Shown: positions 12,133 to 44,953 of the stretch, piece after piece | Position numbering within the stretch: the first letter of the stretch is position 1 | Layout: the number at the start of each line of letters is the position of its first letter | Assembly: GCF_016808095.1 (NCBI RefSeq) | Contig: NC_068978.1 | Coordinates: forward strand, 21,320,806 to 21,384,805 | From: Vigna angularis | Lineage: Eukaryota > Streptophyta > Magnoliopsida > Fabales > Fabaceae | Reading direction: 5' to 3' | Length of the DNA: 64,000 nt | The notes under the pieces: model-generated | Database searches by the model: none | Seen by the model: only the letters and a program-made list of their open reading frames with translations | Told to the model about the DNA's origin: nothing | Made by a program: the position numbers and the translations under genes

Positions 12133-12163
12133 TAACCGATTACACAGAAAATCTAATCGATTA
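12133..12163. promoter_or_regulatory. paired palindrome unit in the leader
   Basis: TAACCGATTA and TAATCGATTA start 21 bp apart, about 27 bp downstream of the PBS in element orientation. The equivalent place in the 27062-34303 element carries the same kind of unit (32833-32863). Confidence 0.7.
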
Positions 12164-12189
12164 GTTTTCGAGTAACATTCGAAAAACCA

Positions 12190-12201
12190 GCTCTGGTGCC
12201 A
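12190..12201 (-). other. primer binding site, initiator tRNA-Met type variant
   Basis: The minus strand reads TGGCACCAGAGC, two bases from the standard TGGTATCAGAGC, directly inside the LTR end. The same variant is at 32890-32901. Confidence 0.85.
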
Positions 12202-12203
12202 AT

Positions 12204-13578
12204 TTTAGAAATGTGTAGGCCCTATTTCCCAACCAAGAGGGGGAAGGGTGAATTGGTTGTTATTACAAAAATGTTCTTTTAAAAACCTTGGAAAATCTTT
12301 TGTACTTTCTTGAAACATAAGCAGTTAAAGATTGTAATGCCATAAAGGAGTTTAGGAATAGAAAGATAAACACCAATATTTTTATACTGGTTCGGTCTCA
12401 ATGCCTATATCCAGTCCCTTTCAATCAACCTGAGATTGAAAGCCTCTTCACTATAAAGATTGAGTTATACAACAAGACTTATAGAGACCCTTTCTCAATG
12501 TAATATCCTCTCCAACTCACAATATAATATAGAAGAATACAATACAGAAAGAACAATCATCTTTCTGCAGAACACCGTTTGAGACACCTCTCAAAGAAAC
12601 CAGAACCTCGCATTCTCTTCCTGGCCACCAACAACAGGGAAACCTCAATCCTCAGATTGCAAAAACAACAAACTGATCAGGTTCAGAACACCTTAGAGTG
12701 CGGATGATGATCATCCAAAGAAAGCACACATAAATTCCTTTAAGAATCCTTAAGATCTTCCAAGCTAGCATTTCTTGATTCTTGGAGAATGAGCACACCT
12801 AAAATTTCTTTCTCAACTTACTTTTGTCAGATATTAAAGATCAAATGTTCAAAAGTTATCAATGCAGAACGCTATGCGTTAATATATAGTTTTTCTCAAG
12901 TCTGTCGCATATTAATCGATTACAATACTAATGTAATCGGTTAAGCAATTATCACTGCTATACCATAATTACATTAGAACATATTTACGCAATTAATGTA
13001 ATTGATTGCACAAATATCATAAGTCAAAACAATTCAAAATATAACCGTTATGTTAATTAAGACTTATTATGAAAACAATTTTCAATGAGCACAGAGTTAA
13101 CCGATTAAGAAAACCGTGTAATCGGTTAAGTATAACACTTAAACAAATTTGAAAACATTTTCATTTGACAATGCATCACAACACTCAACAATCAGGTGTT
13201 AGCAAAGGCATGTGTTTTAATCGATTATACATATAATGTAATCTGTTAAAACTTGCAGTTTGCTACAGTTAAAACATTTGCTGATATCTAATGAATCTAA
13301 CTGATTACATAAACATTGTAATTTATTACTTCATACAGATATACATTGCTCAGACAGTTTTATCATATAGACCCATGAATATGCATACCACAGATATAGA
13401 GTAATGTATAAACACAATATGTATGGTACACAAGCAGTTCAAGCACAACCAAACAAATAAACACAATTAAACATTTCAGTTGTTGTGCAAGAAACTATTA
13501 AAATATTTCGGTTGTTGTCATCATAAAAAACACACAAGGTTTTAGGTTTAACTTTCACATAACTCTCCCTATCAATAG
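12204..13578 (-). repeat. LTR of the truncated copia element
   Basis: It aligns end to end with the LTRs at 27062-28432 and 32904-34303. It contains the core promoter word (TTTTATACTGGTTCGG on the plus strand, 12380-12395) and four paired-palindrome units at 12913-12943, 13098-13128, 13218-13248 and 13298-13328, the last one decayed. All lie upstream of the TATA in the transcribed direction. Confidence 0.85.
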
Positions 13579-14423: not shown

Positions 14424-15610
14424 TGTTAGGAAAGATGTGCTTTGTTTCTCCCACCAAGAGAGAGGTAGGGGGGAGGGAGTGAATTGGTGTTGTATAAAAA
14501 TGATCGCTTTTGAAATCTTTTTCGCAAAACAATAAGTCTTTAAACTTTTCTTGAATCGCAAGTAAAAATGTATGCAATGTAATAATATGCGTATTCGAAT
14601 ACAGACAAAGTATAATCGATTTAATGCAGAGAGATAGGGAGAAGAAAATTCAAACTCTGAGTTTTATACTGGTTCGGCCAATCTGCCTACATCTAGTGTC
14701 CTTCCACTCAACCCGAGATTGGAAGCGAATGTACTATAAAGATATGAGTTTTTACAACAAGGGCTTTACATCGACCACACTGTCAAAATGTAGATCACCT
14801 CTCTAACTCACTAATATAATATAGGCAAATACAAAAAGACTAGCAGCAAGAACAATCCTCTCCTACAGTTACCCCTTTGAGACCCTTCTTAAAGTCAAGA
14901 ACCACGTTCTTCTTCCTGTATACACCATAGGGAAACAACAATAGTCAGCGTTTGCTAAAGCTCCTGATCAAGCAGTAAGCACCTCTGTTGTGTAGAACGA
15001 TCAGACTTTACGAATCAATCAATCTTGCTTCTCAAGAAATCTTCAAGACTTGTACACCACGACAATTCTTGTTTCTTGGAGCGTTTCTCTCTTCTATAAA
15101 ACTTCAAAGCTCAATTTGATTTTGATATGAAAATTGTTAAACTCAATTGTCTTACAAAATTTCAAATCATGCGTTTATATATAGTGTAAGTCAAATCAGA
15201 TGCATTTTAATCGATTATGCTATTAATCTAATCGGTTTCATTTCACAGCTATATCAGATTAACAAAAGTCAAAACCATTAATTGAATGCTCAATTAATGT
15301 AATTGATTTGCAATAAATGCTTGGTAACAATATTTAAAAATATGACCGTTGAGACAGTTATGTCAAGCATTGAAACAATTTTCAAATCTTTAATAGACTT
15401 AATTGAATATATGATCCATGTAATCGATTAAGCTCTAACACTTAGCATATTTTTGAAAACTTTTCTTCTCAAAATCCATCACAACACACTTGAAAAATAT
15501 TTATGCAAACATACGAGTTTTAATCGATTTAACCACTAACGTAATCGATTCAAAACTTGTTGTTTTGCCACAATTTGAAAGTTAAGCTGTCTGATGTCTA
15601 AAAGAAATAC
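14424..15610 (-). repeat. truncated SIRE-like copia LTR
   Basis: It starts TGTTAGGAAAG, matching the TGTTAAAAT start of the 27062 LTR family, and carries the core promoter word (14661-14676). Paired-palindrome units lie at 15208-15238, 15400-15430 and 15521-15551, each with 21-bp spacing. Similarity fades after about 15600. No PBS precedes it, so it is a solo or broken LTR. Confidence 0.8.
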
Positions 15611-15642
15611 AATTTTACAAACGTAGGTTCATAAATGGAAAC

Positions 15643-17370: not shown

Positions 17371-18356
17371 GATGCTAAGGAGGAATAAAGTTATGATAAT
17401 TGGGGATTTTTTTCATGCAAATATATGTTATAAAGATTATATGGTAATCATTCGTAGAATATTGGGTTTTTTATGGTTATAATATGCATAATGATGGGTT
17501 TTGGATGATTTAAGTCATGTAATTTATGTATTAGGGTCTGTTCATAAGGGTATGTGAGGCTTGAATGCATGCATGATGTGTGTGTGTGTTTGAACACTTG
17601 GGTTTTGTGCAAGATGTGTTTTGATTCGGCAATAATCGATTATCATTAGTTATAATCAATTTTTTGTGAATTGGTTGAGTTGAGTTTCAGAAATAATCGA
17701 TTATATGCAATGATAATCGATTATCCCATCATGTGTGATGAATTCTGGTGATTTGAGTGGATAGACCAAATGTCTATGTATGAGATGTTAGTGATGACAT
17801 CTAGGTTCAAGGGTCAACGATTGAGGATTGAAGATCAAGGATCGAAATTTAAGTAATTCATTCTGATTAAGTTGTTATGTTAGAGAATTATGAATCTTGT
17901 TGTTATTACTGATGGTATGAGGTGGTTTATGGTTTATATATTCAATGTGTTTATATCTTATTATTCTTATTATTGATCTATCGGTAGCTTACCCCATATG
18001 TGTTTGTGTTTGTGTGTTGTGAATAAAATTATCAACGATGATTGTATAATGTGTTATACGTGAGCAGATGATGTTGTAGATGGTGCTGAGGCATAATAGA
18101 TTCGAGAGATGATGGCGGACAAACTTGAGAGTTTTATTTAAAGTCATTGCGTTTGAATTTTAAGATAATGTATTTGGAGTTATTTATTTCCTTTGTTATT
18201 TCCATTGGATAAGTTTTTTTGGAACTGTTATGTTTTGAACAAATTATGCATGTTAAATGTGGAGGTTTTTGAAAAGACATTTTTGCTCTATGATGAAGAT
18301 TTGAAATTTACTGGTTTTTTAATAACTCGTGACATCCTGGAAATCGGGGCGTTATA
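17371..18356 (+). repeat. Gypsy-type LTR B, 5'-truncated
   Basis: It aligns with LTR C from about 25527 onward (GATGCTAAGG, ATGCAAATATATG, the GTGAGCAGATGATGTTG block at about 18061) and ends GGGGCGTTATA at 18356 where the family has TTACA. It begins directly at the CACTA end. Two palindrome pairs with 20-bp spacing lie at 17633-17662 and 17694-17723. Confidence 0.75.
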
Positions 18357-19414
18357 GTAAGCCATTTGTCTCAATTAATACTCCAAAAACTTGTAGAAGA
18401 CAATTCGCTAAAGGTTTTTGCTTAAGAAAGCAAAATCTTAAAGCGTTTACAACAGATTAGACGATAATATTCTTTCAGTATGTCGCAGTTTGATAAAAGT
18501 GTCAAAGGATGAAGGCATGCTAGAAGGTCTCAAAAAATGTAATAGAAAAACCTATACGGTTTAACCAAGCTAGACAAACTCTCACCATAAAATAATGAGT
18601 TTGGAAAACACATCAAAAGAACAAAATTTGCTCCAAAACACAAAATAAAAGACATTCCACTAAATGCAATCTTAAAAAATAATGAGTATCTACCAAACAA
18701 ACACTAGCTAAAAAAAGGGCCTCTTATAGGCTAAAAGATATTAGCAGAATGTTTCATTTACCAAAAGTCGTGTCAAATGAATAGACTAACCTACTTTTGA
18801 TAAAGTTCTGAAAAAAAAGTCTGCTCTAACAAAAAGGCATCAACCTATGACTGTCATCTACGATAAAAGTCACGAAAAGTCACTTCACAAGGACAAGTTT
18901 CGTCGAACGGCTATATTGTCAAAGGTGTATAAATAGATTATCGAAGAAAAAGAAGAAGAGAATGATAGGAAATTAAGGAACAAAAAATAAAATCATTTCC
19001 TTATGAGAATCAAGATCTCTCTCTGAACTATTAGAGTCAAATCCTCTTACACAAGAGAAAAGAAAAATAGAAGAGTTAAAAAGAAGAATTTCTCTCAAGC
19101 TTCATTGTTATACATACTCACTACTAAAATAAGAGAGGAAGAAAAAGAGAGATAGAGATACAACTGAAAGAAAGAAGAAAACACTCTTAAACTTCATTGA
19201 TGCATAAGCTTACTATTGTAAGAATAGACAACAGAGAAAAATAGTTAGAGAGTTTGAATTGTATTGATATATTCTCTATAAAAGTAATCGTCTAATGACT
19301 TGTAAGAAATCATATTGATTGCACATTCTAATGACTAGGGATACCAATAGTGGTCAATAATACTGCACAATCAGAAGTGGGTGAAACTCAGTCGAGGTCA
19401 TAATAGTAGGTGGT

Positions 19415-20484
19415 TGTCAGGAGTGGCTGCAGCGGAATGGTTAGCGTGGAATAACAAACCAAGAGGGTTTTTAATTCAAACGTGTGCCTTTTAATTTCTA
19501 CTCAATTAAACTTACTTAGCAATTAACAAAGACAAATAAAGAGAGTAAGGTTGAGAGAAATTTGCACAGATGATTTTATCCTGGTTCGGATCTTACCAAT
19601 CCTACGTCCAGTCGCTTATCTCAAAACAAGATAAACAGTTTCACTAACACAAAACAATTACAAACTACAATCACAAAGATACAATTTGTAAGAGTTTAGA
19701 AACCACCTCTCTTGATACCACAAGAGATGAAACTACACCTCCTTTGAGTCTTCACAAAGGATGAACACCTCCTCCGAATACTTCACGAAGGATGAACACC
19801 TCCTTTGAATACTTCACGAAGGATGATTCTCTTCCGAACACCTCCTTAGACACATTAAGGATGAACCGGCTATCTCCTCTGTCACCGTAGCAGCACTTCA
19901 CCAGCTCCACAGACACGAGTTTCACAAGCCGGACAAGAACACACAAGTCTCAAGAATTTCTGAGTATTTGAGCATAAGGGAAGAGTTTCTGTGTCTCTAG
20001 TTGAGAGGAAATGAGAGTCTATTTATAGACTCATCCAAAGACTCTTCCATTTTTCGTTTTCAGCCTTTCACACTGTGTTAATCGATTAGCTACAGTGGTT
20101 AATCGATTAACAACCCAACGGATAGTTCAACGGCTCTAAAAACGGATAGTTTTTCAAACGGTCCCTGTGTTAATCGATTAACAGCCCTTGTTAATCGATT
20201 AACACCCTCTGTTAATCGAATAACACTGCAATGCTGGGCTTCTCCATGGCGCACTGGAACAATCGATTAACACCCTCTGTTAATCGATTAGCACTGCACA
20301 GTTTTGGCTTTTTGGTTTATTTTTACATCACTTTTGAATGCATACATAAAACTACTAATTTTCCTATGTTCAAACAATTATTACAAAAGGTTACAAGTCT
20401 TCAAAGATCATTCTTCATGAGTCTTGTTTGTTCTTGACTTGATTTGGACATCATCAAAACTTCATCTTCATTATTTTGCTAACA
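19415..20484 (-). repeat. 3' LTR of the gag-only copia element (1070 bp)
   Basis: Nearly identical to 22904-23986. Seven TAATCGATTA-type sites lie at 20079, 20100, 20171, 20192, 20213, 20260 and 20281. The core promoter sequence at about 19574-19590 reads CCGAACCAGGATAAAA on the minus strand. Confidence 0.95.
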
Positions 20485-20844
20485 ATCTCCCCTTTTTTGA
20501 TGATGATCAAAACCTTCTTTTTTATTTAAAGCTTTTGGTAATAATCTGTATATAAAACACAACTTAAGGAAGAAACAGTTGTTAGTGTACTTAGAAATAA
20601 GTTTAAGGCTTTAAATATTTCTCCCCCTTTTTGATCATTATTAAAAAGTGATGTATAATTGCTCCCCCTAAATTTATTTAGAAATTATACTCCCCCTCAT
20701 TAAAAGCATGTATGCATAGAAATATTAAGGAAAAACAACATACATTTTATTGAATTTTAATGAGGCAAGCATACAAAGAAGTTAAATATATATCACACAT
20801 ACTACAAAAAGCATAGAAGCATAAAATACCCCTTTAGATATGCC

Positions 20845-21060
20845 TCCAATTTCGTAATGATAATCCTCTAGGTTGTTTCCACATTTTGTTTAGATCTTCA
20901 TCTTGAGGATTGTCATCATTCTTTACTTCATTTGTTGTCTTCTACAAATCTTCATTATTGCCTGCATGTAATTCAAATGACTCAAGAGGTTTTGCCTCAA
21001 GGTCTACAATTTCATCAAAGACAACATGCACACATTTTTCTATTTTTCCGTTTGAAAACT
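20845..21060 (-). pseudogene. relic of copia pol (integrase-RT linker)
   Basis: The minus strand reads a VHVVFDE-type motif (about 21030), which in copia polyproteins marks the end of integrase before RT. An acidic stretch and a TGA/TAG-broken tail follow. Only about 70 codons remain. It suggests the element arose by deleting most of pol from a full-length ancestor. Confidence 0.6.
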
Positions 21061-21252
21061 ATATATGCTTTGTATATTAAAAATTGTTCCATATAAAAAT
21101 TTCTTTAATTCTTCTTTTCAAATATTTAAAATAAAAACAATTTTTTTTAAAAAAAATTTTCTTAAATATTGTTTTAGAGAAATTCTAAATTTTAAACAGT
21201 AGGTACCCAACTATTTTGTATGGGTCCTTTGGGTTAGTTTGAAAATTTGAAA

Positions 21253-22869
21253 TCATTTTACAACCCAAATATATCTACCACTAGGAACACCATAATGCTT
21301 AATTTTACATTTGTTAGATGTATGACCCTTTTTCATACAATAAAAGCATGATACAACATTTGTGTTCCTATAAGTTGTTCCTTTTTCTACCCAAGTTCTA
21401 TGGGTTCTATGATTATGTTTATTTTTAATTCTAGGAACATACTTATTTTTAACAACCTTATTTTCATTATTTTTACTACATTCTCCTGAGGTTGTTTCAT
21501 CTAGTAGTTTCTTATAATTAGCACAAGATGTACATTCATCACTACTAGTAAATTTACCCTTTTCAAGAAATAAAACTCTATTTTTCAAAGTTTTATTTTC
21601 ATCAATAATAGTTTCAAAATTTGTTTTTAAATTTTGATTTTCTTCAAGAGTATTTTCAAAATTCAATTTTAACTCTTTGAAATCCTTTTTCAATTTCTGA
21701 TGGGCTTTATCTAATTTTTCAGATTCTACTATTAAAGCAGCATAAATTTCATGCAATTCATTTTCACTAATTTGACTAGAATTATCAGAATCGCTAGATG
21801 TACTTACTTGGCTTCCAGCGTCGTCATTTACCACTAAACAGATGTTTGCTTCTTCATCTGAGTAGCTTGAATCTGAAATGGTCTCATTGTCGTCTTCCCA
21901 TGCGATGTACGCTCTCTTTTTCTTGAAGAATTTCTTTTCTTCACCTTTCTTTTGATTTGGGCAGTCTGCTTTTAGATGCCCCTTTTCTCCGCAACCATAG
22001 CATCGGTAATTTGAGGAAGATACTGGATTATCTTTCTTTTCGTATCTAAATTTTCCTTTACCTTTAGACTTCATGAACTTGTTGAGCCTTTTTACCATGA
22101 GTCTCAAAATTTCTTCTTCTTCGTCTGAGTCTTCATCTTCCGATTTACCTTTGCTTCTTTCAACCTCAGATTTCAAGGCTAGACTCTTTTTCTTAGTTTT
22201 TGCTTTTGTTGCTTCTTCATCTAGTCTTCCGAGGTCAAGTTCATGTTCCCTCAACTTTCCAAAAAGTGCCGCCATAGTCATGGTGTTGAGATTTTGTGAC
22301 TCAGAAATTGCAGTCACTTTTGGTTGCCAAGACCTGTCTAAAGATTTCAGAATTTTTATATTAAGCTCATCAGTATCGAAAGATTTACCTAGTCCAATGA
22401 GATGATTGACAATGTTGGTGAAGCGTTTTTGAACATCTACTATTGTTTCCCCTTGCTTCATCCTGAACATCTCGTATTCCTGGATTAAGGTATTCTTTCT
22501 AGCTCTCTTAACATCATCTGTACCTTCATGGGTTACTCTTAGTACTTCCCACATTTCTTGTGCAGTTTTACAAACAGAAACCCTGTAAAACTCATCAACA
22601 GTTAAAGCAGATGAAATAATATTACGAGCTTTTACATCATTACCAATTTTTTTCTTATCTTGAGCAGTCCATTGGTCACGGGGCTTTGGTTCCTGCATAT
22701 TGTTAGTTGGAACAAAAGGACCAAATGCAACAGCATCCCAAATATCTATATCAATAGATTCCATAAAAATTTGCATTCTTACCTTCTAGAATGCATAGTT
22801 CTCACTTGTGAATAATGGTGGTCTATTGATAGAAGCACCCTCTGCAAAGGTTTGATGTGATCCTGCCAT
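21253..22869 (-). pseudogene. copia gag (UBN2-type) with one premature stop
   Basis: The family start codon is at 22869. A TAG at 22788-22786 replaces the tryptophan of the E-N-Y-x-F/Y-W motif at codon 28. From the next ATG (22776) the frame is open for 507 residues to 21253. It shows the gag-polypeptide (UBN2/Retrotran_gag_2) fold with QEYEMFRMK and ILKSL-type motifs, a lysine/acidic linker, and a CX2CX4HX4C zinc knuckle at 22002-21961. A coiled-coil-like region and a second CX2CX4HX4C knuckle at 21348-21307 follow. Gag would form the virus-like particle and bind element RNA. Restart at 22776 could give a nearly full protein lacking the first 31 residues. Confidence 0.9.
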
Positions 22870-22889
22870 TTGAATGACTATCAAAGCAA

Positions 22890-22901
22890 GCTCTGATACC
22901 A
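22890..22901 (-). other. primer binding site for initiator tRNA-Met
   Basis: The minus strand reads TGGTATCAGAGC, the standard copia PBS, two bases inside the 5' LTR end. Only about 20 bases separate it from the gag start. Confidence 0.95.
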
Positions 22902-22903
22902 AT

Positions 22904-23986
22904 TGTCAGGAGCGGCTGCAGCGGAATGGTTAGCGTGGAATAACAAACCAAGAGGGTTTTTAATTCAAACGTGTGCCTTTTAATTTCTACTCAATTAAAC
23001 TTACTTAGAAATTAACAAAGACAAATTAAGAGAGTAAGGTTGAGAGAAATTTGCACAGATGATTTTATCCTGGTTCGGATCTTACCAATCCTACGTCCAG
23101 TCGCTTATCTCAAAACAAGATAAACAGTTTCACTAACACAAAACAATTACAAACTACAATCACAAAGATACAATTTGTAAGAGTTTAGAAACCACCTCTC
23201 TTGATACCACAAGAGATGAAACTACACCTCCTTTAAGTCTTCACAAAGGATGAACACCTCCTCCGAATACTTCACGAAGGATGAACACCTCCTTTGAATA
23301 CTTCACGAAGGATGATTCTCTTCCGAACACCTCCTTAGACACACCAAGGATGAACCGGCTATTTCCTCTGTCACCGTAGCAGCACTTCACCAGCTCCACA
23401 GACACGAGTTTCACAAGCCGGACAAGAACACACAAGTCTCAAGAATTTCTGAGTATTTGAGCATAAGGGAAGAGTTTTGTGTCTCTAGTTGAGAGGAAAT
23501 GAGAGTCTATTTATAGACTCATCCAAAGAATCTTCCATTTTTCGTTTTCAGCCTTTCACACTGTGTTAATCGATTAGCTACAGTGGTTAATCGATTAACA
23601 ACCCAACGGATAGTTCAACGGCTCTAAAAACGGCTAGTTTTTCAAACGGTCCCTGTGTTAATCGATTAACAGCCCTTGTTAATCGATTAACGTTAATCGA
23701 TTAACACCCTCTGTTAATCGATTAACACTGCAATGCTGGGCTTCTCCATGGCGCACTGGAACAATCGATTAACACCCTCTGTTAATCGATTAGCACTGCA
23801 CAGTTTTGGCTTTTTGGTTTATTTTTACATCACTTTTGAATGCATACATAAAACTACTAATTTTCCTATGTTCAAACAATTATTACAAAAGGTTACAAGT
23901 CTTCAAAGATCATTCTTCATGAGTCTTGTTTGTTCTTGACTTGATTTGGACATCATCAAAACTTCATCTTCATCATTTTGCTAACA
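22904..23986 (-). repeat. 5' LTR of the gag-only copia element (1083 bp)
   Basis: It has eight TAATCGATTA-type sites (23567, 23588, 23659, 23680, 23694, 23715, 23762, 23783) against seven in the partner LTR. The local change at 23690-23703 accounts for most of the 13-bp length difference. The U3 sites lie upstream of the TATA-like word in the transcribed direction. Confidence 0.95.
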
Positions 23987-26121
23987 GTGGTTACTCGGTT
24001 GACAAGGACGACCAAGAGTGGGTTAAACTCAATTAGGCAGCATATTAGGGGATGCCATGATTGTCTAAGGATACCAAGAAATGTGAAGAATACTACATAA
24101 CCAAGAGTAGGTAAAACTCAGTCGAGGTCATAGTAACAAGTGGTTACTAGATTGATAGGGATAACTAGGAATGGGTTAAACTTAATTAGGCAGTGTATCA
24201 AGGGATACCAACAATGGTGAAGAATACTACATAACCAAGAGTGGATGAAACTCAGTCAAGGTCACAATAGTAGGGGGTTACTAGTATAAGATGCTCGAGT
24301 ATTAGAATCTATGTTGTAACAAATCATTTTATGTAAAAATCGATGTCTCATCACACATGTCAATCCTAGAAAAGCCCTAGGAGAATGAATTAAAGTTAAT
24401 TCTATAAAAGCTTGCAACAGGATATCATTTACAACGTTAAGGACAACCAGCTCATGAGGATAATTTATATCATGATCAGCTTATTAGCCACGAAAAGAGT
24501 TATAAAATCATTATTCAACCCTCCTTCTGGTGTTTTCCCACAACATCATTTATGTTTATCCTTTTGTGTTTTTCATTTATCCTTATAAGGAAAAATGTAG
24601 TAATGAGGAGATAAAGTGGGTTTTGAGACTTGAGTGTTATTGTTGGTAATTAGGTTTAATGTTTAGATGTTGTTTATAATTATAATTAATATTCTAGTTA
24701 TTTATGTTTTGTTAATAAAATGCAACACATGATTGGTATGTTGGTAATTGGGTGATTTAGTGAGTGTGTGATATTATTAAAATGATGTGATGTCTTGTTA
24801 ATGGAAGCATGGTTTAGGATTTAATGGATGTGGGTTCAATTCTAGGGGGAAAGGGAATTAATGGAAACATTTGTTTTATTTGTATTTTTTCTTAAGGGCA
24901 AAATGGTCTTTTACCTTTATTTAATTGGTGAAGAAAATAAATAAGGGGGTGTAGGAAATAAAAGTGTGTAGATCAAATAAAATAAAATAAAAGGATATAT
25001 AGGAGAAGTAAGTTAGAAGGAGAATAGAGATTTAGATAGGTTTGGTTTTTAAAATATATTATTATAAGTGAGGAGTTATTAGAGATAAAGTTGGGTTGTT
25101 TTATTGATACTAAGATATAGAGAGAATGGTGATATTTGGTGTTTTATAAACCATAGAAACTCTAAATCAAAGACAGAAGTAAAAGAGAGAGAGACGTTTG
25201 GGAGAGAAGAGAAATAGCAACAGAAACCCTAGGGCAAAGGGAAGATTGGTGGTGCTTTGGGTTGTAGATAAAGCCCTAGTATTGGCCAAGGTGTGGGGAA
25301 GCTTACCTTTGTTTGTTTATTGTTGTATGTTATATGTCTTTTTGGTTATTTTGGATTGATAATCCTTGTTGATACATGTTTATATGATTATGATTTTGAT
25401 TATATGTTGCTATTGTTGGGCAAGGGTTTGTGTATGCATGGACATAGGGTTTATGTAATATTTGTGTTGGATTTTCCTTATGAATGTATTATGTATATTT
25501 GTTGGGTTATCCCAACGGAGGGTTTGATGCTAAGGGAGAACAAATTTATGATGCTTGGGGGTTTCCATGCAAGTATATGTTGTAAGGGTGTGGTGATAAT
25601 CATATGCATTATAATTGATTTTATTGGAGTGTAACATGTTAATAATTGGATTTGGATGATTCAAGTGATGTATTATATGTGTTTGAGTATGTTTACATGG
25701 GTATGTGATGCTTGAATGCATGTATCACATGTTAAGTATGTTTTCACATGATCTAGGGTTGAGGTATGTGTGTTTTGAATGCTTCAATCATGTCGAGAAT
25801 GTGTATCATTTCAGAAATAATTGATTATCATTAGTAATAATTGATTATTTGTGCATCGATATTGAGTTTGGTTGCGAGAATAATCGATTATCTCATCCTG
25901 CGTGATGTTTCTGGGTAATAATATCTGAGATAATCGGAATGCGTTGGTAATTAAGGAATGAAAGTAATAGGTATGTATAGAGTCTGTTTTGACTTGTGAT
26001 TATGAGTGGAGCATGAGTTGGAACAGGAATGCACAAGAGTATGTATGATTAATGAGCATGAGGCATGAGAGATTAGTCTACTTGTTGTACCTAGTAAATT
26101 CTGGTTCTATCTGCGGATAGG

Positions 26122-26227: not shown

Positions 26228-27061
26228 GAGTTCGAGTGTTGAATCTTGTTTTGTGAGGGGAATAGATGTTCTTCCTTGTGTGATAGAGGAACAGGTCTGA
26301 AGTCAGAAGAAGGATGACTCGAATGTGTCTGTATGGGGAAGCTAGAGATGGCATTGTAGAAGCAACTACAATCGGTTGAGATAAGGTACAAGAGTGTGAC
26401 TGAGTCTTGTCATGATGGAGTTCATGGTTTGGTGAGGCTCCTGATGTTGTTCGTGATTGGGACAATCATGATGTTGGTGTATCTATGATGGTAATCATGG
26501 TATTTGAGATGCTCCAGGTGATGTGTTATGTGTTAGCAGTGTTACTATAATAGTTATAGTAAGTAGTTAGCATAGGTGATAATGGGTAGATAGACCAAGG
26601 GCCTAGGTGTGAGATGTTACTGATGACGTTGAGAGTTAGAGATCGACGACCGAGTAATTATTTCTGATTGAATTGTTATACTAGAGGTTTAGGAATCTTA
26701 TTAAAATTACTATTATGTATGGGGTGTTTGATTATTATTGATATAATCATTATGTTTATATCTTGTTATTATGATTATTTTATCGGTAGCTTACCCTATA
26801 CATGTTTGTGTTTATGTGTTTATGTGTTTGTGAATGAAATTATCGACGATGATCGTATAATGTGTTGTAAGTGAGCAGATGATATTGCAGATTTTCCACA
26901 GGCATAACACATTCAAGAGATGGCAGGCAATAGACTTGAGATTTTTATTTAAAGTCATAACGTTTGAATTTTAAAGATAATGTATTTGGAGTTACTTTAT
27001 TTCCTTCGTTATTTCTATTGGATATATGTTTTTGGATATGTCGATTAAATGATAAGGTTTT

Positions 27062-28432
27062 TGTTAAAATAGAATGGTTCAATTTCTCACACCAAGAGGG
27101 GGGGGATTAGTGAAGTATAAAATTTAAAACTTTTAAATATTTTTCTGAAACGTAACTTAGAAGAGTTTCAATGCAGCGGAAATTTAATCGGATGCATATA
27201 AAGTATAATCGATTGAATGTAAAAGAGTAGGGATAAGAAAGATCAAAGCCTGAGATTTTATACTGGTTTGGCCAACCCTACATCCAGTGTCCTTCCAACC
27301 ATAGGAAGCCAATGCACTATAATGATCAAGGTTTTTACAACAAGGTTTTTATAGAAACCTCACGTCAAAAATATAAAACACCTCTCTAACCCTCTAATCA
27401 AAATATAGGCAGTACATAAACATACTAGCAGCAAGAATTCTCTCTCCTGCAGTCCAACCCCTTTGAGGCACACTTAAAGTCAAGAATGCAACACATCCTT
27501 CTTCTTGTAATCACAATAGGGAACTCAACCCAATCTTCAGCAGATTGTAGAACCTGATCTTGCAATAGACACCCAAATGTGTAGATAGATCAGACTTTGA
27601 AAACTCAACAATCTTGCTCTTCAAGAAATAAAAATTAGTTGATCACCATGGTCAAAGTAGTTTCTTGGAGCTTTTTCTCTTTCTGTAAACTTTACATCTT
27701 TATGCAAAAGAATATGAAAATGTTAGAATCACAAAAGTCTTTACAAAAATCAAATTCGCGTCAATATATAGATAAACTCGTATCAGACGCAACATAATCG
27801 ACTTTGCTACTAACACAGTCGAATACATCAATTCCATTATAACAAATAGTAGCAGTCAATGCAATTAATTGAATTCAGAACTAATGCAATCGAATAACAT
27901 TTAATGTTTGGTCAACACATTTAAAAATATAGTCATTGTGACAATTATATCAAGCATTAACAGATTTCAAAGCAGTAACAAACTTAATGGAATACATATC
28001 GCATGCAATCGATTATGAAACAGTGTTATGCAAAGTTTTGAAAACTTTTCTCTTTGAAAAACTCTCACAGCACACTTGAAGTTTGTGCAAAGACACTAGT
28101 TTTAATCGATTCACCCCAGAATGTAATCGATTTCAAACTGTTGTTTTGCCACACAATTAAAGTTCAACATTAGTGCTTGTGGTTTTTCTCATCCAAAAAC
28201 ATGTGTCACGCATTCATTTATAAAATCACATATATAACACAGTGAAATGCAATGAACAACACAGTAGCAACACAATCATGTTCTCATATACGCATATAAC
28301 GTGTAAGCATAGAACATGTAGCACACAATACACATGTGTTATTAATTATGTGTTGTCATCGTCAAAAACTTAGATATTACTGAGATTGTGGGTTCAGCTA
28401 AACCAGTGCTCCCCCTATCAACAATCTCAATA
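27062..28432 (-). repeat. 3' LTR of the gag+ORF2 copia element
   Basis: It aligns with 32904-34303. The outer three bases differ (ATA here, GCA at 34301-34303). Palindrome pairs with 21-bp spacing lie at 27795/27816 (decayed), 27985/28006 and 28103/28124. The core promoter word is at about 27257-27270. Confidence 0.92.
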
Positions 28433-30546: not shown

Positions 30547-30848
30547 TTGTATGAAAAGAAGAGTATTGATCACTGAATATCACAAAGGAAGGATTCAAAT
30601 GTCAGCTGAGAAGGTAAATAACATGCTTATGTGTTTTAGGGTTTAAATCAAAACAAAATTAAATTTGGAGGGAACACAAAAATCCATTTTCACACCAAAA
30701 ATCGATTTTAATCGAATTTAACAAATTTCAAATTTTCAAATCATAAGAAAGCTCAAAACAGAGATTATTAATCAATTTCATTAAAAACATAGTCGACTTA
30801 ATGTTTGACAAAGTGTTACCAAAAATAGAGAAACACAGTCACAGATTC

Positions 30849-30879
30849 TAATCGACTCAGTTCATAACATAACTGATTA
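30849..30879. promoter_or_regulatory. paired palindrome unit between gag and ORF2
   Basis: TAATCGACTC and TAACTGATTA start 21 bp apart, upstream of ORF2 in the transcribed direction. It is the one interior copy of the LTR-type unit outside a leader. Confidence 0.45.
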
Positions 30880-31065
30880 AAAATCGCATAACAATATTTT
30901 TACAGAAAACAATCAATCAAGCAGCATATAGCAAACATGCATATAAAAATCAATCATACAGATGCTTCTGATGCATGAAAGAGTTTTGAAACAGTTACCA
31001 CAATCAATGACTTAAGAATTTTTTATTTCATCATGGTAGTTCATCCTTGAGTTGAATACTGCTTC

Positions 31066-32830
31066 AGCAGCTACTACTCCTTTCCTGCACAACAATTAAA
31101 AGGTTTTGACACTGGTACCCATTTAAACTTGGTTCCTGTCTTGTTAGTAGCTGGAGGTTGATCCTTGGGAACCCATTTGTATTTTCCCTTTGGAACACCA
31201 ACATTTCTAAAATAGAAGTTTCTAACATTGTGACCAAGTGTGTTGCACTAAAAGCATGCATTAGTAGTAGGTTTACTCAAATCAATAAATTTTTTTGAGT
31301 TTATCCTATTGCTTTTACTTTATAACCAATACCTCTTCTGTTGATAGCTCTTCTAGATGTTCTTAACACATCATCAAGATTTTCTTTGCCTTGAGTAAAT
31401 TTGGCTAACATGCTAGTTAAGTAATCAATTTTCTCAATGTGTACAGGACAATTACCACATTCTTTCTCAATAATTTTTATTTCGGTCTTTCTGTCTTTGC
31501 AGATTTCAAAGCTTCTTCAAGATCTTTTTCAAGCTTTTCATTATCCTGTACTAGATTATCAATTCTTTATTCATAGTCTCTTCTCTCAAAGGATAATCGA
31601 TTCACCTTATATTGAAGTCGCATGGCTTCTGCATATATCTCCTGAAATACATCCAATAGCATGTAGTACTTGACTTCTATTGGTTCATTCTCAAATTCAT
31701 GATCACTGTCATCATCAGATTGTGCAGAGCCTGTCATGAAGCATAAATTTGAATCCTCTTCAATACTACAATCATCATTACTTGAAGAGTCTCCATCACT
31801 GTTTTCCCAAGCAATATAAGCTTTCCTTTGCTTCCTATTCTTGTCCTGAGGATACTTGGTGAATTCTTTCTGCTTGATCTTCAAGTCTGGATAGTCAGAC
31901 TTGACATGACCATCCTTTCCACATTCATAACATTGTACAACGTTGCTTCTTGAGCTATTCTTTCCTCCTCTTGAAAAGTCTGCATTGGTAGTTGCAAAAT
32001 TTTTATTTTTCATGAATCTGTTAAATTTTCTCACCATCATATTCATGATTTCTTTTTCTAGTACATCTACATCTGATTCATCTTCAGGTTCAAGATTCTT
32101 TGTAGCTTCTTGCTTGTGGCCTTTAGAGCAATTGATTTCTTCTCTTCAATTTATTCTTCCTCTTTTAGCCTTCCAAGCTCCAATTCATGTTCTTTGAGTT
32201 TTCCAAATAACGTGGCCATGTTCATGCTAGTCAAGTCTCTTGATTCAGATATTGCAGTGACTTTAGGCTGTCAGCTTCTGTTGAGGCTTTTCAGGATCTT
32301 TATGTTGATTTCTTCTTTATCAAACATTTTCCCGAGAGCCATTAGGTGATTGACTATGTGTGTGAACCGTTTATGTACATCATATATAGTCTCTCCCGCT
32401 TTCATTCTGAACAACTCATACTCTTGTATGAGAGAATTCTTTCTGGCCCTTTTCACTTCATTCGTTCCTTCATGTGTCACTTCAAGAACCTCTCACATTT
32501 CTTTAGCAGTTTTACATTGGGAAATCCCGAAAAATTCATCCATGGTTAGTGTAGAAACATTAACATTTCTAGCCTTAACATCATATTGAGCTCTTCGGTT
32601 CTCAACTTGAGTCCACTCTGAAAATTTTTTCAAAACAACTTTTCCATTTAAAACATGAGTGGGCTCATATGGACCGTTTAGAGTTGCATCTCAAACTCCT
32701 TTATCCACCGATTCAAGAAAAATTTACATCCTTATTTTCCAAAAAGCATAATTTTCTCCAGCAAATAGTGGTGGTCTATTTGTCGAAGCACCTTCACCAA
32801 AGTCCTGAGAATTGAAAGCTATTTTCCAGG
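31066..32830 (-). pseudogene. copia gag, decayed
   Basis: It is related to the gag at 21253-22869. The UBN2-type region runs from about 32800 to 32150 and is broken by at least four stops, three of which are TGA at positions where the relative has tryptophan (for example in the EMWEVL and RSWQP motifs). The first zinc knuckle (31932-31891) keeps C, C and H, but its last cysteine has become tyrosine. A second knuckle-like motif lies near 31255-31215, followed by repeated K-W-V-P words and an end at about 31073. The particle protein should not be made from this copy. Confidence 0.85.
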
Positions 32831-32832
32831 AT

Positions 32833-32863
32833 CAATCGATTGAACAAAAATAGTAATCGACTA
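32833..32863. promoter_or_regulatory. paired palindrome unit in the leader
   Basis: CAATCGATTG and TAATCGACTA start 21 bp apart, about 27 bases downstream of the PBS in element orientation, as at 12133-12163. Confidence 0.65.
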
Positions 32864-32889
32864 GTTTTTCAAATATTTTATGAAAACCA

Positions 32890-32901
32890 GCTCTGGTGCC
32901 A
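32890..32901 (-). other. primer binding site, initiator tRNA-Met type variant
   Basis: The minus strand reads TGGCACCAGAGC next to the 5' LTR end at 32904, the same variant as 12190-12201. Confidence 0.88.
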
Positions 32902-32903
32902 AT

Positions 32904-34303
32904 TGTTAAAATAGAATGGCTCAATTTCTCACACCAAGAAGGGGGATAAATTGGTGAAGTATAAAATTTAAAACTTTCAAAATATTTTTCACCAAAAGAG
33001 ATGTCTTTATACTTTTCTTGAAACGCAAGTTAAAAGATTTTCAATGTAGCGGAAATTTAATCGAATGCGTATAAAGTATAATCGATTGAATGTAAAAGAG
33101 TAGGGATAAGAAAGATCAAACGCTAGGTTTTTATACTGGTTCGGCCAACCCTACATCTAGTGTCCTTCCAACCACAGGAAGCCAATGTACTATAATGATC
33201 AAGTTTTACAACAAGGTTTTTATAGAGACCTCACGTCAAAAATATAAAACACCTCTCTAACCTTCTAATCAAAATATAGGCAGTACATAAACAGACTAGT
33301 AGCAAGAATCCCCTCTCCTGCAGTCCAACCCCTTTGAGGCACCCTTAAAGTCAAGAACGAAGCATGTCCTTCTTCCTGTAATCACAATAGGGAACTCAAC
33401 CCAATCTTCATCAAATTGTAGAACCTGACCTTGTAGTAGACACCCAAATGTGCAGATAGATCAGACTTTGAAAACTCAGCAATCTTGCTCTTCAAGAAAT
33501 CATAATTAGTTGATCACCACGGTCAAACTAGTTTCTTGGAGCTTTTTCTCTTTTTTTAAACTTTACACTTTTTTGCAAAAGAATATGAAAATGTTAGAAT
33601 CACAAAAGTTGTTACAGAAATCAAATTCGTGTCAATATATAGATAAAATCGTATCAGACGCAACAAAATCGACTTTGCTACTAATGCAGTCGAATACGCC
33701 AATTCAGTTATAACAGATAGTAGTAGTCAAAGCAATTAATTGAATTCACAATTAATGCAGCCGAATAACATTTAATGTTTGGTCAACACATTTAAAAATA
33801 TAGTCGTTGTGACAGTTATATCAAGCATTAACAGATTTCAAAACAGTAACAAACTTAATCGAATATATATCGCATGCAATCGATTATGCAACACTGTTAT
33901 GAAAAGTTTTGAAAACTTTTCTCTTTGAAAAAGTCTCACAGCACACTTGAATTTTGTGCAAAGACACTAGTTTTAATCGATTCACCCCATAATGTAATCG
34001 ATTTCAAAGTGTTGTTTTGCCACACAATTAAAGTTCAACATTAGTGCTTGTGGTTTTTCTCATCCAAAAACATGTGTCATGCATTCATGTATAAAATCAC
34101 ATATATAACACAGTGAAATGCAATGAACAACACAACAACAATACAATCATGTTCTCATATATGCATATAACATGTAAGCATAGAACATGTAACACACAAT
34201 ACACATGTGTTATTAATTATGTGTTGTCATCATAAGAAACTTATATATTACTAAGATTGTGTGTTCAGCTAAACGAGTGCTCCCCCTATCAATAATCTCA
34301 GCA
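32904..34303 (-). repeat. 5' LTR of the gag+ORF2 copia element
   Basis: It begins TGTTAAAAT and ends CTCAGCA on the plus strand. Palindrome pairs with 21-bp spacing lie at 33666/33687 (decayed), 33856/33877 and 33974/33995. The core promoter word (CCGAACCAGTATAAAA on the minus strand) is at 33128-33142. Confidence 0.92.
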
Positions 34304-34404
34304 GTTTTTAAAAATACGTTTACGGGCTATAATAAAGTTTTGAAATATATTCGGGTTTTGTAAACTCGTGACATCAAAGACTTTGGGGCATTACAATCCT
34401 CATG

Positions 34405-36946
34405 TGTCAGAACCAGTAAAATCCATGCACGTATCGCTTAGTGGAATTCACGTGTCAAGAGGGAGGCTCGACACTCAGATGATGAACGCCAGATGTCAAG
34501 CGAAGAGGATCAGAATGTCAGTTAGTGGAAAACAGGTGTCGACTGAAGAGGGGACGTTTGTTCTGACGCGCGGAGCAAAACTTGAATTTTTAGAAAAATC
34601 TACCCCACTCTCTGCATGCACCCCTTTCCAGATTTCTGAAAAATCACATTCTCTCCTCCTTCTCTCTACGTCTTCTTCATCTTCTCTCTGAGAAAACACT
34701 CATCTTTCTCTTCTCCGATCCTCATTCAGAGACCGTAGGAGCACTCCCGGCGTCTCAAGCTTCACTTTGAACCGAACAAATCTGAGTTCTGAAACTGGTA
34801 AGTTTCTTTATGCCTAGCCGTTAGTTTTTGTGATACATGCAAACCCAGTTCCGGTGGCATGCTGTTATCCTGTCTGAGTCTCTGTTGGTTTATTGGATGT
34901 TTAAATTAGTTTAAAGAGGAGTGGAACGTAAGGGTAGAAGGGAACTCAGTCAGACGATAAGTATTTTACCTTAGTACGTTCGTTCACTTTCAGAGGTAAG
35001 GGAAGCTTATTTAATTTAATTTGATTTGTTTGTTGTTGAACTGTCTGAATGTTCGTTTAGTTGATTTGATGATTTTGATGCATGATGGTTGAAATGATTG
35101 TATGGAATGAACGTTCGTTTATTGGATGAGATGAAATGAAATATGAATGGATTAGGTTATAATGTATGAAATATATGAAACTTATATGATATGTGATGTA
35201 TGAGATATGAAAATTGATTATGATAGGAATTTTATAAAGTTCTGAAGTTATAACTTAAGAAAAATGAGTTCGATTGTAAAAGATTATGTATATGAGATTT
35301 CACTATGATAAAGTACGTTCGTCACTGAATGGTCATTGACCGTTCGGTTTTCCTAGTAAACCTAGTTGAAACGGGATTCTTTCATTTGGAGAGAATCCTA
35401 GTATAGGACGAGTGCCTTCGTGTGGTAATACTATGCTTGAGCGTTCGGCCAAGCATAGTGGGGCCTGAATCTAATGTGATAAACCTAATATATGTATATG
35501 TACTTGTATATTCTCTTTGTTCGTAAACACCACTTCAATAGTAACTTAATATAATTATCAACCCTTTTATTTTAAGTTTATTAGTGCTCGGTCTTACACC
35601 TAGCACTCGTAAGGAGTAGTGCTCGGTCTTATACCAAGCGCTCGTACTCGTTGTTGGTATAATCAATCTTGATAAAATAGCGTTCATCCAAATGTTTAGT
35701 AACATATTCTTACCATGTTCGGTCACTGACTGGCAATCGTTTTCTGTATATGAATGATTCTAAATATGGTTATCTAATATTCTAACGCGTCTACATTCAT
35801 TGGATCCGGCCTAGAGTCCCCGTACTTGAATTATTGTTTGAGTATGGGTTTGAATTCATGGGAGCCAGTTCATTTAACTGGTTCACTATGTAAATAACGT
35901 TCGTCATATATGGTATATTATTGTACTCGAAATATTCTTATATCTAAAAGAAATTCTCTTGGTATTATTCCATTCTGGAACGAGAGATTTTATCGGTCTC
36001 GTTTCTATCGTTCGTCCTCGTTATGAAGAGGGCGGAACGTTCGGTAATTTATGTATTTAGGGAGGATGAGGAAAATGACACCCAAGTAAAAGGTTATAAA
36101 GAATGAAGAGTATATGAGATGAATGTAAGATTTTGGATTTGAACGAGCGTTCCGGGGAGGAACGACTTTTGGATGAATATTGGAATTTGTAAAGTATGAT
36201 TGTGGAAATGCTTGGCTGGCGGTTCATCCTGATGTTCCGTGAGTACTCGTCCTCACGTAGAGAAGGGTAGATCATGTGTGGGAACGGCAGGAGGTCCTAG
36301 TCCTTAGGGGTACTTTGGACGGAACAGACTAACCTCGGGTGGCAGCTGATGAGAATTCCAGTTACTACATCACCCGGGTGCACGAACGTCGTAGCTACAC
36401 AGAATTCATACAGTCCGGACGGTCAGTCTAGTAGTAGGCATTGTTTGTATAAGTATGTTGAAATGTACTTGATGTGTTTGAATTGATAAACGTATGTTAT
36501 TTTCTTGAATTAAATTACATAAGCTTACCCTGTGTTTTCCTGTCGTGTCTGGTTTTGTACGTCCGTCCTTGTCATTGCAATGATCATCCGTGTGGATGTG
36601 AGCAGAAGGAGACGAGCGGTTGGAAGATGCGTTGGAAGAAGAAAATTTGGTAGAAGTGGAAGTGAAGAACGAGCAGTAGGAACGTTCGGCTAGTAGATGA
36701 TTAGTGTTATCGTGAGGTGATCGTTCGGTCACCCCCTCTTTTGTTTTTATCTGACCGTTCGGTATTTTTCTCTTGTAAACCGTTCGGTCAGGTTTGCTTA
36801 TCTAGTATGGTTTAACTTTGTAATCCTTTTTGTAAGGCCGTTCGGTCATGAGCGTACGCTCGACTCTAGTGTAAGACTGATTGTGGATTATTATTAATGT
36901 GAGTATTCTAATATATAGTTTATTGCTGTATTTTTGAGATGTTACA
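34405..36946 (+). mobile_element. Gypsy-type solo LTR D (2542 bp)
   Basis: It begins TGTCAGAACC and ends GAGATGTTACA, flanked by the perfect 5-bp duplication TCATG (34400-34404, 36947-36951). No internal region remains, so it is a solo LTR left by LTR-LTR recombination. It holds the family's GAGGTAAGGGAAGCTTA block (about 34995), AAGCTTACCCTG (36521) and GTGAGCAGAAG (36598). It carries about ten CGTTCGGTC-like words and a 7-bp hairpin at 35374-35398. Confidence 0.92.
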
Positions 36947-36951
36947 TCATG

Positions 36952-37214
36952 TAATTTACAAAATGCATTTGTTTGTGGAAGGTCATTGGCTTGGGAAGCT
37001 AACAACGCATGGCATAAACTGGATTTGAGGCTAGAGGTGAAACAACTCATGTAAAACATGGTTAGGATATCTAGATATGCGATTGGAAATTGTTTCAAAA
37101 TCATAGAGTTATTCATGTAGAGATTGAATTTGGAACAACTTCCACAAAGCGGTGATCAGGTCGTTAAACTTTGAGGGATCAAAGTGGAATTCAAATGCTC
37201 TATGGAAGGACTAT
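36952..37214. other. unassigned DNA between solo LTRs
   Basis: No ORF of interest. It continues on the far side of the copia solo LTR at 38315. Confidence 0.5.
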
Positions 37215-38304
37215 CATGTGTTAGTAAAATCATGAAGTATAGAAGTTTTCATGATGTCAAAATCAGCTCTCAAGTGCTCACTTTGTAAGAAGACCTTTAT
37301 GAAGACTTGTTTTATATCTTAAAGCTTTTGTAATTAGTAGTTTTATGTATAGGGCCTTATATGTTGTTGATTCCATGTAATTTAAACCTTAAAATTCATT
37401 TTGGAGTCAAAAAGCTTTGCAATAATCGATTAGCTACTTAAGATAATCGATTATCATAGAGAGGTTTTTAAAGTTTGCTAAAAAATCAATTTTGGCTCTA
37501 GCATAATCGATTACCAGAGTATGATATTCGATTATGCATAATCGATTATGACTTACCATAATCAATTATCATAGCTAGCCATTGGAGTTTTTGAGCATGC
37601 TTTTTGCCATTGTGTATTCATTAAATGCATAATCGATTACCATAAGTGGATAATCGATTATCACGCGAGAAAAAGCTGACAACGGATTTTTGGAGGAGTC
37701 CTTGAATGAGGTCTTTATAAAAATGTTTTAGACTCTCATTCTAACACACATGTGTTTTCTTAAACTGTGAAAAGTGTGATCTAGGGTTTTTGTAACTCTT
37801 GTGCTTTGGCTTTGAAAACTTGGTGTTTGCAAAAGCGATAACTTTCGCTAGGAGTGTGATTAAGTGTTGCTACTATTGTTGAGTCAAGCCTGTCATCCTT
37901 TATGAAGATTCAAAAGAAGTGTTCATCCTTTGTGAAGCATTTGGAGGAGGTTTTCATCCCTTGTGACCTTCAGGGGAAGTAAGTTTCATCTCTTGTGGTA
38001 ACAAGAAAATGTTTTCTAAACCCTTAAACTTGTCTTTTTTAGTGAATTTAATAGTTTAATTGTTTTGTAATAGTGGATAGTTAATCTCTTTGGGATTAGC
38101 AACTAGACGTAAGATCTTTGTGATTAGAACCAGTATAAAATTAGTTGTGCAACTTTATCTCTTCCCTTACTCTTTATTATTGTTTTAATTACTCGCTAAG
38201 TTAAAATTGAGAGAAAATTAGTAAAGGCACTCATTTGCAATATAAAACCAATTCACCCCTCTTGGTTTATTGTTCATGCTAAAGATTTCGCTACATTGCT
38301 ATGT
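37215..38304 (+). mobile_element. SIRE-like copia solo LTR (about 1.09 kb)
   Basis: The sequence from TGTTAGTAAAATC (37219) aligns along its whole length with the reverse complement of the LTRs at 19415-20484 and 22904-23986, including AAGACTTG, the CATCC...TGTGAAG repeats, GAACCAGTATAAAA (38127-38140) and the CCTCTTGGTTT end. It is flanked by a 10-bp direct repeat GAAGGACTAT (37205-37214, 38305-38314), longer than the usual 5 bp. Eight palindromic sites lie at 37423, 37444, 37504, 37525, 37539, 37559, 37630 and 37651. Confidence 0.85.
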
Positions 38305-44948: not shown

Positions 44949-44953
44949 TGATA

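What the first reader, a model, noticed from the sequence alone, without database searches (positions are those of the whole stretch)
12133..37660. Paired TAATCGATTA palindromes at a fixed 21-bp spacing across many LTRs
Seen: copies of the 10-bp palindrome TAATCGATTA, some with one to three changes, come in pairs whose start-to-start distance is 21 bp in the copia LTRs (examples 12913/12934, 13098/13119, 13218/13239, 15208/15229, 15521/15542, 20079/20100, 20171/20192/20213, 28103/28124, 33974/33995, 37423/37444, 37630/37651). I count about 30 intervals of 20 or 21 bp and only two other close intervals, both 14 bp. The 11 bases between sites vary greatly, so spacing and half-sites are conserved but not the filler. 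Inference: a protein that contacts two sites on the same helix face. TAATNNATTA resembles a homeodomain dimer site. The pairs sit in U3, several hundred bases upstream of the LTR TATA box. I do not know a published description of this module.
Basis: seen in the sequence. Interest (0 to 1): 0.87.

Follow-up and report, generated by a model that had tools for sequence, protein, structure and literature searches.

The report
Paired palindromic promoter boxes in Sireviruses
Jumping genes in this bean-family genome carry thousands of copies of a short mirror-image DNA box that mostly comes in twos, 20 or 21 bases apart and often just in front of the element's own promoter, which suggests that one still unknown DNA-binding protein grips both boxes at once.

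Summary
The window holds 27 exact TAATCGATTA (0.2 expected), and 31 site pairs 20 or 21 bp apart. In the 448-Mb genome, exact pairs spaced 10-40 bp number 13,351 (reversed-pattern control 13); 5,673 are at 20 and 4,985 at 21. In 25 fetched loci, 106 of 129 close intervals are 20 or 21; none is 15-19 or 22-26.

The box is known in kind: it is the palindromic "repeated motif" (RM) of Sireviruses (PMC2829016); tobacco Tnd-1 has ACAATCGATTGT. Window element D has the published Sirevirus junction. In 17 of 48 clusters the array ends 45-55 bp before a TATA box.

New here is the pairing. Homologous LTRs D2 and E keep sites (81/90) while filler is near random (19/54; rest 556/895). One related LTR has all four pairs at 20 bp where D has 21. 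The same pair also occurs in an inverted-end element and a foldback repeat.

Most likely each pair is a two-turn composite site for two dimers, or a tetramer, of an unidentified, probably host, DNA-binding protein. No binding was tested; hairpin/small-RNA roles remain a rival.

The parts
19414..20484 (-). 3' LTR of element D (Sirevirus type); holds sites at 20079, 20100, 20171, 20192, 20213, 20260, 20281
20021..20027 (-). TATA match, 51 bp from the array of the D 3' LTR
20079..20109 (.). site pair, 21 bp
20171..20222 (.). site triple, 21+21 bp; 14 bp shorter than the matching four-site cluster of the 5' LTR
20260..20290 (.). site pair, 21 bp
21256..22785 (-). gag ORF of element D (Retrotran_gag_2, zinc knuckle)
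22890..22901 (-). primer-binding-site region of D; with the preceding bases it reads CA-ATTGG-TATCAGAGC, the published Sirevirus junction
22903..23986 (-). 5' LTR of element D
23509..23515 (-). TATA match, 51 bp from the array of the D 5' LTR
23567..23597 (.). site pair, 21 bp, both exact
23659..23724 (.). two site pairs of 21 bp, 14 bp between the inner sites (four exact sites)
23762..23792 (.). site pair, 21 bp
37219..38298 (+). LTR E, related to D (74% over 415 bp of its 3' part)
37423..37453 (.). site pair, 21 bp, both exact
37504..37568 (.). two site pairs, 21 and 20 bp, 14 bp between the inner sites
37630..37660 (.). site pair, 21 bp, both exact
37716..37722 (+). TATA match, 55 bp from the array of E
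27061..28429 (-). 3' LTR of element B
32903..34300 (-). 5' LTR of element B
32890..32901 (-). primer-binding-site region of B (CA-ATTGG-CACCAGAGC, two differences from the Sirevirus junction)
32833..32863 (.). degenerate site pair, 21 bp, in the leader just after the primer-binding site of B
33058..33088 (.). degenerate pair, 21 bp, R/U5 side of the B 5' LTR (matches 27185-27215 in the 3' LTR and 14592-14622 in B1)
33856..33886 (.). site pair, 21 bp (matches 27985-28015)
33974..34004 (.). site pair, 21 bp (matches 28103-28133)
27985..28133 (.). two site pairs, 21 bp, of the B 3' LTR
12190..12201 (-). primer-binding-site-like sequence at the end of LTR A
12133..12163 (.). site pair, 21 bp, in the leader after the primer-binding site of A
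12882..12888 (-). TATA match of LTR A, 24 bp from the nearest site
12913..12943 (.). site pair, 21 bp
13098..13248 (.). two site pairs, 21 bp (13098/13119, 13218/13239)
14592..14622 (.). degenerate pair, 21 bp, R/U5 side of LTR B1
15208..15551 (.). three site pairs, 21 bp (15208/15229, 15400/15421, 15521/15542) of LTR B1
17633..17723 (.). two pairs of 20 bp in an unclassified repeat (C1)
25818..25847 (.). pair of 20 bp in the related repeat C2

Best explanation
The palindromes are the Sirevirus 'repeated motif' boxes of this host's Sireviruses, and their working unit is the pair. Each palindrome (10 bp, effectively about 12) binds one dimer of a DNA-binding protein, and two dimers, or one tetramer, sit two helical turns apart on one face of the DNA. 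Several such pairs form a promoter-proximal array upstream of the TATA box that controls transcription of the element; a second array after pol may serve an internal promoter for the ORF that follows. Inferred: that a protein binds, that it does so as a dimer of dimers, that the effect is on transcription, and that the protein comes from the host.
For: Genome-wide 10,658 of 13,351 exact pairs at 10-40 bp are at 20 or 21 bp. Of 129 close intervals in 25 loci, 106 are 20 or 21 and none 15-19 or 22-26, while gaps between pairs vary. D2 vs E: sites 81/90, filler 19/54, rest 556/895. In 14 array comparisons, 30 of 32 aligned pairs keep the same spacing and the other 2 differ by one base; sites exceed both filler and rest in 13 of 14. 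Same four slots: D 21/21/21/21, L036 20/20/20/20, L037 20 in its 3 intact slots, E 21/21/20/21, with unrelated fillers. CpGs in sites kept 7 of 8 vs 3 of 23 outside for D vs E. TATA match 45-55 bp from the array edge in 17 of 48 clusters. Arrays between pol and a following ORF in L017 and L027. The published RM has the same placement.
Against: No binding, expression or footprint data. In the older A/B LTRs sites are only modestly better conserved than filler or rest (A vs B2: 58/89, 29/52, 573/1034; B1 vs B3: 68/90, 34/47, 682/998). 31 of 48 clusters have no TATA match at 45-55 bp, among them single pairs and pairs in leader, R/U5, post-pol and non-LTR places. In the 21-bp fillers dyad symmetry reaches the second filler base (19 of 28 against 9.5), and arrays fold strongly as RNA (z -8.8 and -6.5), which a hairpin role would also explain. 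Most loci were picked because they hold exact pairs, which favours conservation.
Confidence: 0.6

Rival explanations
1. Hairpin or small-RNA function: the two palindromes of a pair, and neighbouring pairs, fold into stem-loops in the transcript that feed small-RNA production or act in the element's RNA, as proposed for maize Sirevirus palindromes.
For: Arrays of D and E fold far better than shuffled sequence (z -8.84 and -6.49, 0 of 200 shuffles each). Passages of PMC5311732 and PMC10760457 report small-RNA hotspots over palindrome-rich maize Sirevirus LTRs, citing Bousios 2016, which is not held. In L028 the pair sits at the tip of a long inverted repeat. Dyad symmetry reaches the second filler base in 21-bp pairs (19 of 28 against 9.5).
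Against: Beyond one or two bases no pairing is kept: in 31 distinct 20-bp fillers only the first position is above chance (27 against 19.4); outer arms of 60 bp match at 10-31 positions in 36 of 37 pair classes. Loop length has no evident reason to be exactly 10 or 11 in unrelated families. The window variant test did not favour between-site complementarity (169 against 169.0), but it did not favour within-site symmetry either (171 against 168.8).
Confidence: 0.17
2. Copying artefact: pairs spread by local duplication and gene conversion of a 31-bp block, and the spacing is a relic without function.
For: Within D some fillers are identical or nearly so (acaccctctgt twice). D1 and D2 differ by one 14-bp repeat unit. 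Many genome copies are simply copies of high-copy elements.
Against: Fillers differ widely between families (28 distinct among 50 listed places at 21 bp; 31 distinct among those listed at 20 bp). In L036 all four pairs have 20 bp with four different fillers where D has 21. Sites persist while filler turns over between D and E.
Confidence: 0.13
3. The pair is bound by a protein, but for silencing, chromatin or transposition rather than promoter activation, for example a host factor that marks elements or an element protein that needs the sites.
For: Pairs also lie in leaders, R/U5, after pol, and about 190 bp inside both ends of the inverted-end element of L010. Each site holds one CpG.
Against: The repeated position shortly before the TATA box points to transcription. 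Scans of gag, pol and post-pol ORFs of L017 and L027 showed gag, zinc-knuckle, integrase and reverse-transcriptase domains but no significant sequence-specific DNA-binding family (a weak leucine-zipper match in gag, E 0.006, is below its cut-off).
Confidence: 0.1

Closest known systems
Sirevirus repeated-motif (RM) boxes (PMC2829016; abstract, passages and sections 6, 9, 12, 19 seen)
   Same: Palindromic box in many copies in the LTR, upstream of the TATA box, with further copies between pol and the following gene; tobacco Tnd-1 box ACAATCGATTGT shares the AATCGATT core.
   Different: Twelve of its 13 boxes have a CGG-CCG core, absent here. A fixed 20/21-bp pairing is not mentioned in the parts read; its figures and supplements were not seen.
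[quoted passage not shown]
   Same: Clustered palindromes in the LTR regulatory region with strong predicted folding; the maize palindrome was also reported in Helitrons, as the pair here occurs in non-LTR repeats.
   Different: Different box (CACCGGAC...GTCCGGTG); small-RNA role proposed; pair spacing unknown to me.
Homeodomain dimer sites (HD-Zip, paired-class) and pairs of MADS CArG boxes (recalled, not searched)
   Same: TAAT..ATTA palindrome for a dimer; two 10-bp dimer sites on one helix face for a tetramer.
   Different: HD-Zip sites have a one-base centre, here two. I recall variable spacing for CArG pairs; here 20 or 21 bp dominate. No binding evidence.

Membership tests
Sirevirus | 5' LTR/internal junction CA-ATTGG-TATCAGAGC | tested here: met
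   Element D matches all 16 letters; B has two differences. Junction or PBS-like matches also in L012, L013, L017, L020, L025, L026, L027, L029 and L037.
Sirevirus | Several polypurine tracts AGGGGGAG in the linker, the last 10 bp before the 3' LTR | tested here: met
   Three tracts each in L017, L025, L026, the last next to the 3' LTR. In window element D the tract next to the LTR has four G, with one AAGGGGGAGA further away at 20620.
Sirevirus | Copia gag and pol, pol in the Sirevirus clade | tested here: inconclusive
   Copia-type gag, integrase and RVT_2 found in L017 and L027; no phylogeny with reference lineages was made.
Sirevirus | env-like gene after pol (in part of the genus) | tested here: inconclusive
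   ORFs of 297 aa (L017) and 247 aa (L027) follow pol; their only Pfam match is Transposase_32, below its cut-off.
Sirevirus RM box | Palindromic box, at least eight copies per element, clustered in the upper half of the LTR upstream of a TATA box | tested here: met
   D 5' LTR and E have 8 sites each, L017 10 in the LTR; TATA match 50-55 bp downstream in these. A/B LTRs have fewer and decayed sites.
Sirevirus RM box | Additional copies between pol and the env-like gene | tested here: met
   L017 4397-4462 (4 sites) and L027 8201-8539 (9 sites).
Sirevirus RM box | CGG-CCG core | tested here: not met
   Core is AATCGATT, as in Tnd-1, which the paper names as its one exception.
Homeodomain binding site | Bound by a homeodomain protein | not testable with these tools
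   No binding data; resemblance recalled only.

The most novel reading that the evidence does not exclude
The 20/21-bp double palindrome is a composite address read by one host dimer-of-dimers DNA-binding protein, and unrelated kinds of transposable elements of this genome (Sireviruses, an inverted-end element, a foldback repeat) have each acquired it, so that thousands of elements answer to the same unknown regulator.
Probability: 0.33. Interest if true: 0.82.

Novelty: new variant of a known kind. Interest (0 to 1): 0.6.

Why it matters
Sirevirus RM boxes were described in 2010 without a binding factor. A near-exclusive two-turn spacing in more than ten thousand exact copies in one genome turns that open question into a sharp prediction: the protein must prefer pairs 20-21 bp apart. 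One pull-down with spacing variants could name a regulator of an abundant retrotransposon group, and perhaps of other repeats that carry the same pair.

Tried and rejected
Viral contigs as a source of relatives: 5 stretches for the pair pattern, not examined as plant DNA; no confirmed relative for gag or pol; 3 stretches for the maize motif, not examined; 0 for the Tnd-1 pair. Rfam over 12000-38400: 0 matches at gathering scores. A within-site versus between-site symmetry test on 21 variant pairs of the window separated nothing. Repeats C1/C2 stayed unclassified. The idea that all pairs are copies of one 31-bp block with its filler was rejected. Counts at 19 and 22 bp and the total of single sites did not complete. 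Bousios 2016 (PMC4728375) is not held.
Full report
What was checked. TAATCGATTA occurs 27 times exactly in the 64-kb window against 0.2 in simulations, and 58 times with up to one mismatch against 3.6. At up to two mismatches 27 pairs are 21 bp apart and 4 are 20 bp apart. Randomising site positions within each cluster gives 0.6 pairs at 21 bp against 12 observed for AATCGATT; apart from TA repeats, no other palindromic 8-mer has more than one pair at any single distance of 9-60 bp.

Genome scale. The window's own genome (448 Mb, 33 contigs) holds 4,985 exact pairs at 21 bp, 5,673 at 20 bp and 13,351 at all spacings from 10 to 40 bp; the reversed pattern gives 0, 0 and 13. The tool calls such counts lower bounds. 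Of the first 50 places listed, 27 are at 20 bp, 15 at 21, 4 at 29, and one each at 12, 14, 28 and 36. Counts at 19 and 22 bp were asked for and not answered. In 25 fetched loci (170,624 bases, 234 sites with up to one mismatch) the intervals of 40 bp or less are 61 at 21, 45 at 20, 11 at 14, 3 at 12, 1 at 27, 3 at 28 and 5 at 29. These loci were chosen because exact pairs are listed there, so they say which spacings occur near pairs, not how dense pairs are.

What carries the pairs. Element D (19414-23986, minus strand) has two LTRs of about 1.1 kb, a copia-type gag with a zinc knuckle, and the junction CA-ATTGG-TATCAGAGC, the published Sirevirus junction. Element B (27061-34300, minus) and LTRs A and B1 are more decayed and related to one another; E at 37.2-38.3 kb (plus) is related to D. 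The gag of L027 is 97% identical to a Vigna angularis protein, so the host is probably adzuki bean or a near relative; this was not tested further. L017 and L027 hold longer copies with copia gag and pol; their Pol proteins are 82% identical. L017, L025 and L026 have three AGGGGGAG-type tracts each. These are Sirevirus hallmarks as read in PMC2829016. No Pol phylogeny was made.

Prior art. PMC2829016 (abstract, passages and sections 6, 9, 12 and 19 seen) describes in 13 of its 21 Sireviruses a palindromic repeated motif in the upper half of the LTR, shortly before a TATA box, with further copies upstream of the env-like gene. All but one have a CGG-CCG core; the exception, tobacco Tnd-1, has ACAATCGATTGT in 8 copies, with the core seen here. 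The boxes of this window are therefore RM boxes of the Tnd-1 type. The parts read do not mention a fixed spacing, and eight paper searches brought up no description of one; figures and supplements were not seen, and most subscription papers are not held.

Anatomy. Counting only sites that have a partner at 20 or 21 bp, 47 of 48 clusters in the window and in L010-L029 have an even number (2 to 10); the exception, the D 3' LTR, has 7. In 17 of 48 clusters a TATA match lies 45-55 bp from the array edge. In 8 more there is a match at 24, 25, 72, 85, 87 or 105 bp, of which the two at 85 bp (element B) are on the wrong strand; in 23 there is none within 120 bp, and these include all single pairs of L010, L020, L024 and L028, the linker clusters of L012, L013 and L017, and one array cut off by the end of its locus (L018). 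In L017 four sites (21-14-21) lie between the end of pol and an ORF of 297 aa; in L027 nine sites lie between pol and an ORF of 247 aa. In the window, pairs also occur on the R/U5 side of the B-type LTRs and just after the primer-binding sites of A and B.

Constraint. D2 and E share four pairs in the same order. Sites are 81/90 identical, the rest of the LTR 556/895, the filler 19/54 (Fisher tests 1e-11 for site vs filler and 1e-4 for filler vs rest). With stricter site calls on the array region alone the figures are 77/80, 226/435 and 15/43. Site columns are defined by the motif, which favours them. CpGs are kept in 7 of 8 places in sites and 3 of 23 outside for D vs E; over all eleven LTR comparisons the figures are 75 of 78 and 190 of 288, but these are not independent and most loci were picked for intact pairs. 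In the 14 array comparisons, sites exceed both filler and rest in 13 and tie with filler in one; filler is below rest in 9 and above it in 5, so the very low filler identity of D vs E is not general. Of 32 pairs aligned at both sites, 30 keep the same spacing and 2 differ by one base. In the A/B LTRs sites are only modestly better conserved (A vs B1 56/70 against filler 19/36 and rest 583/966; A vs B2 58/89, 29/52, 573/1034).

Spacing toggles in concert. L036 and L037 are D-family LTRs (76-84% identical to window D), fetched because 20-bp pairs were listed there. In the same slots D has 21/21/21/21, L036 20/20/20/20, L037 20 in its three intact slots and E 21/21/20/21, with unrelated fillers, while gaps between pairs differ (47, 48 or 60; 12 or 14; 63, 71 or 93). 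Four separate one-base shifts in one array without a shared filler are hard to explain by copying and fit selection for a spacing.

Symmetry. In 37 distinct pair classes the base next to each site is also symmetric (outer flanks complementary in 33 of 37 against 15.2 by shuffling, inner in 23 of 37 against 12.8), so the site is effectively about 12 bp. At the second base the excess is weak in that set, clear in 28 distinct 21-bp fillers (19 against 9.5) and absent in 31 distinct 20-bp fillers (11 against 11.8). Outer arms over 60 bp match at 10-31 positions in 36 of 37 classes and at 43 in one L020 class. This argues against a longer hairpin as the selected feature in LTRs, although the arrays fold well as RNA.

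Other carriers. L020, L024 and L028 are related tandem repeats; in L028 the pair sits at the tip of a long inverted repeat. L010 holds an element of about 1.7 kb with inverted ends of about 690 bp and one pair some 190 bp from each end. None of these four loci matched the window LTRs. Their classification rests on inverted-repeat structure only, and a decayed link to LTR elements is not excluded.

Reading. The simplest account is a composite site for two dimers, or a tetramer, on one face of the helix, used mainly as a promoter-proximal element. No protein is identified, and no binding, expression or small-RNA data were available. Homeodomain (TAAT) and GARP/Myb (GATT) factors are candidates by motif resemblance, recalled and not searched.

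Noticed in passing
20171-20222 vs 23659-23724: The two LTRs of element D differ by one 14-bp unit: the 5' LTR has four sites (21-14-21), the 3' LTR three. E has the four-site form, so the 3' LTR probably lost a unit.
   Followed up: partly
44456-44953: Near-identical 267-bp tandem repeat (99%, 1.9 copies) with a Sirevirus-like primer-binding sequence TGGTATCAGAGC on the plus strand at 44682.
   Followed up: no
2-1495: Copia-type reverse transcriptase ORF (RVT_2) cut by the window start, plus strand.
   Followed up: no
2832-3109: 138-bp tandem repeat with one TAACCGATTA per unit (2919, 3057).
   Followed up: no
17371-18223 and 25526-27036: Two diverged copies of an unclassified repeat (C) carry 20-bp site pairs; element B abuts the second copy at 27061.
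   Followed up: partly
L028:2828-4746, L020, L024: Tandem/foldback repeat with long inverted arms and the 21-bp site pair at the tip.
   Followed up: partly
L010:2336-4042: Element with about 690-bp inverted ends, repeated GAAGTCGTG-like words and one site pair per end, near a glycosyltransferase family 8 ORF.
   Followed up: partly
L017:3060-3950, L027:9081-9821: ORFs after pol with sub-threshold matches to Transposase_32, in the place of a Sirevirus env-like gene.
   Followed up: no
50224-50595: ORF with a Myb/SANT-like DNA-binding domain (PF13837), minus strand.
   Followed up: no
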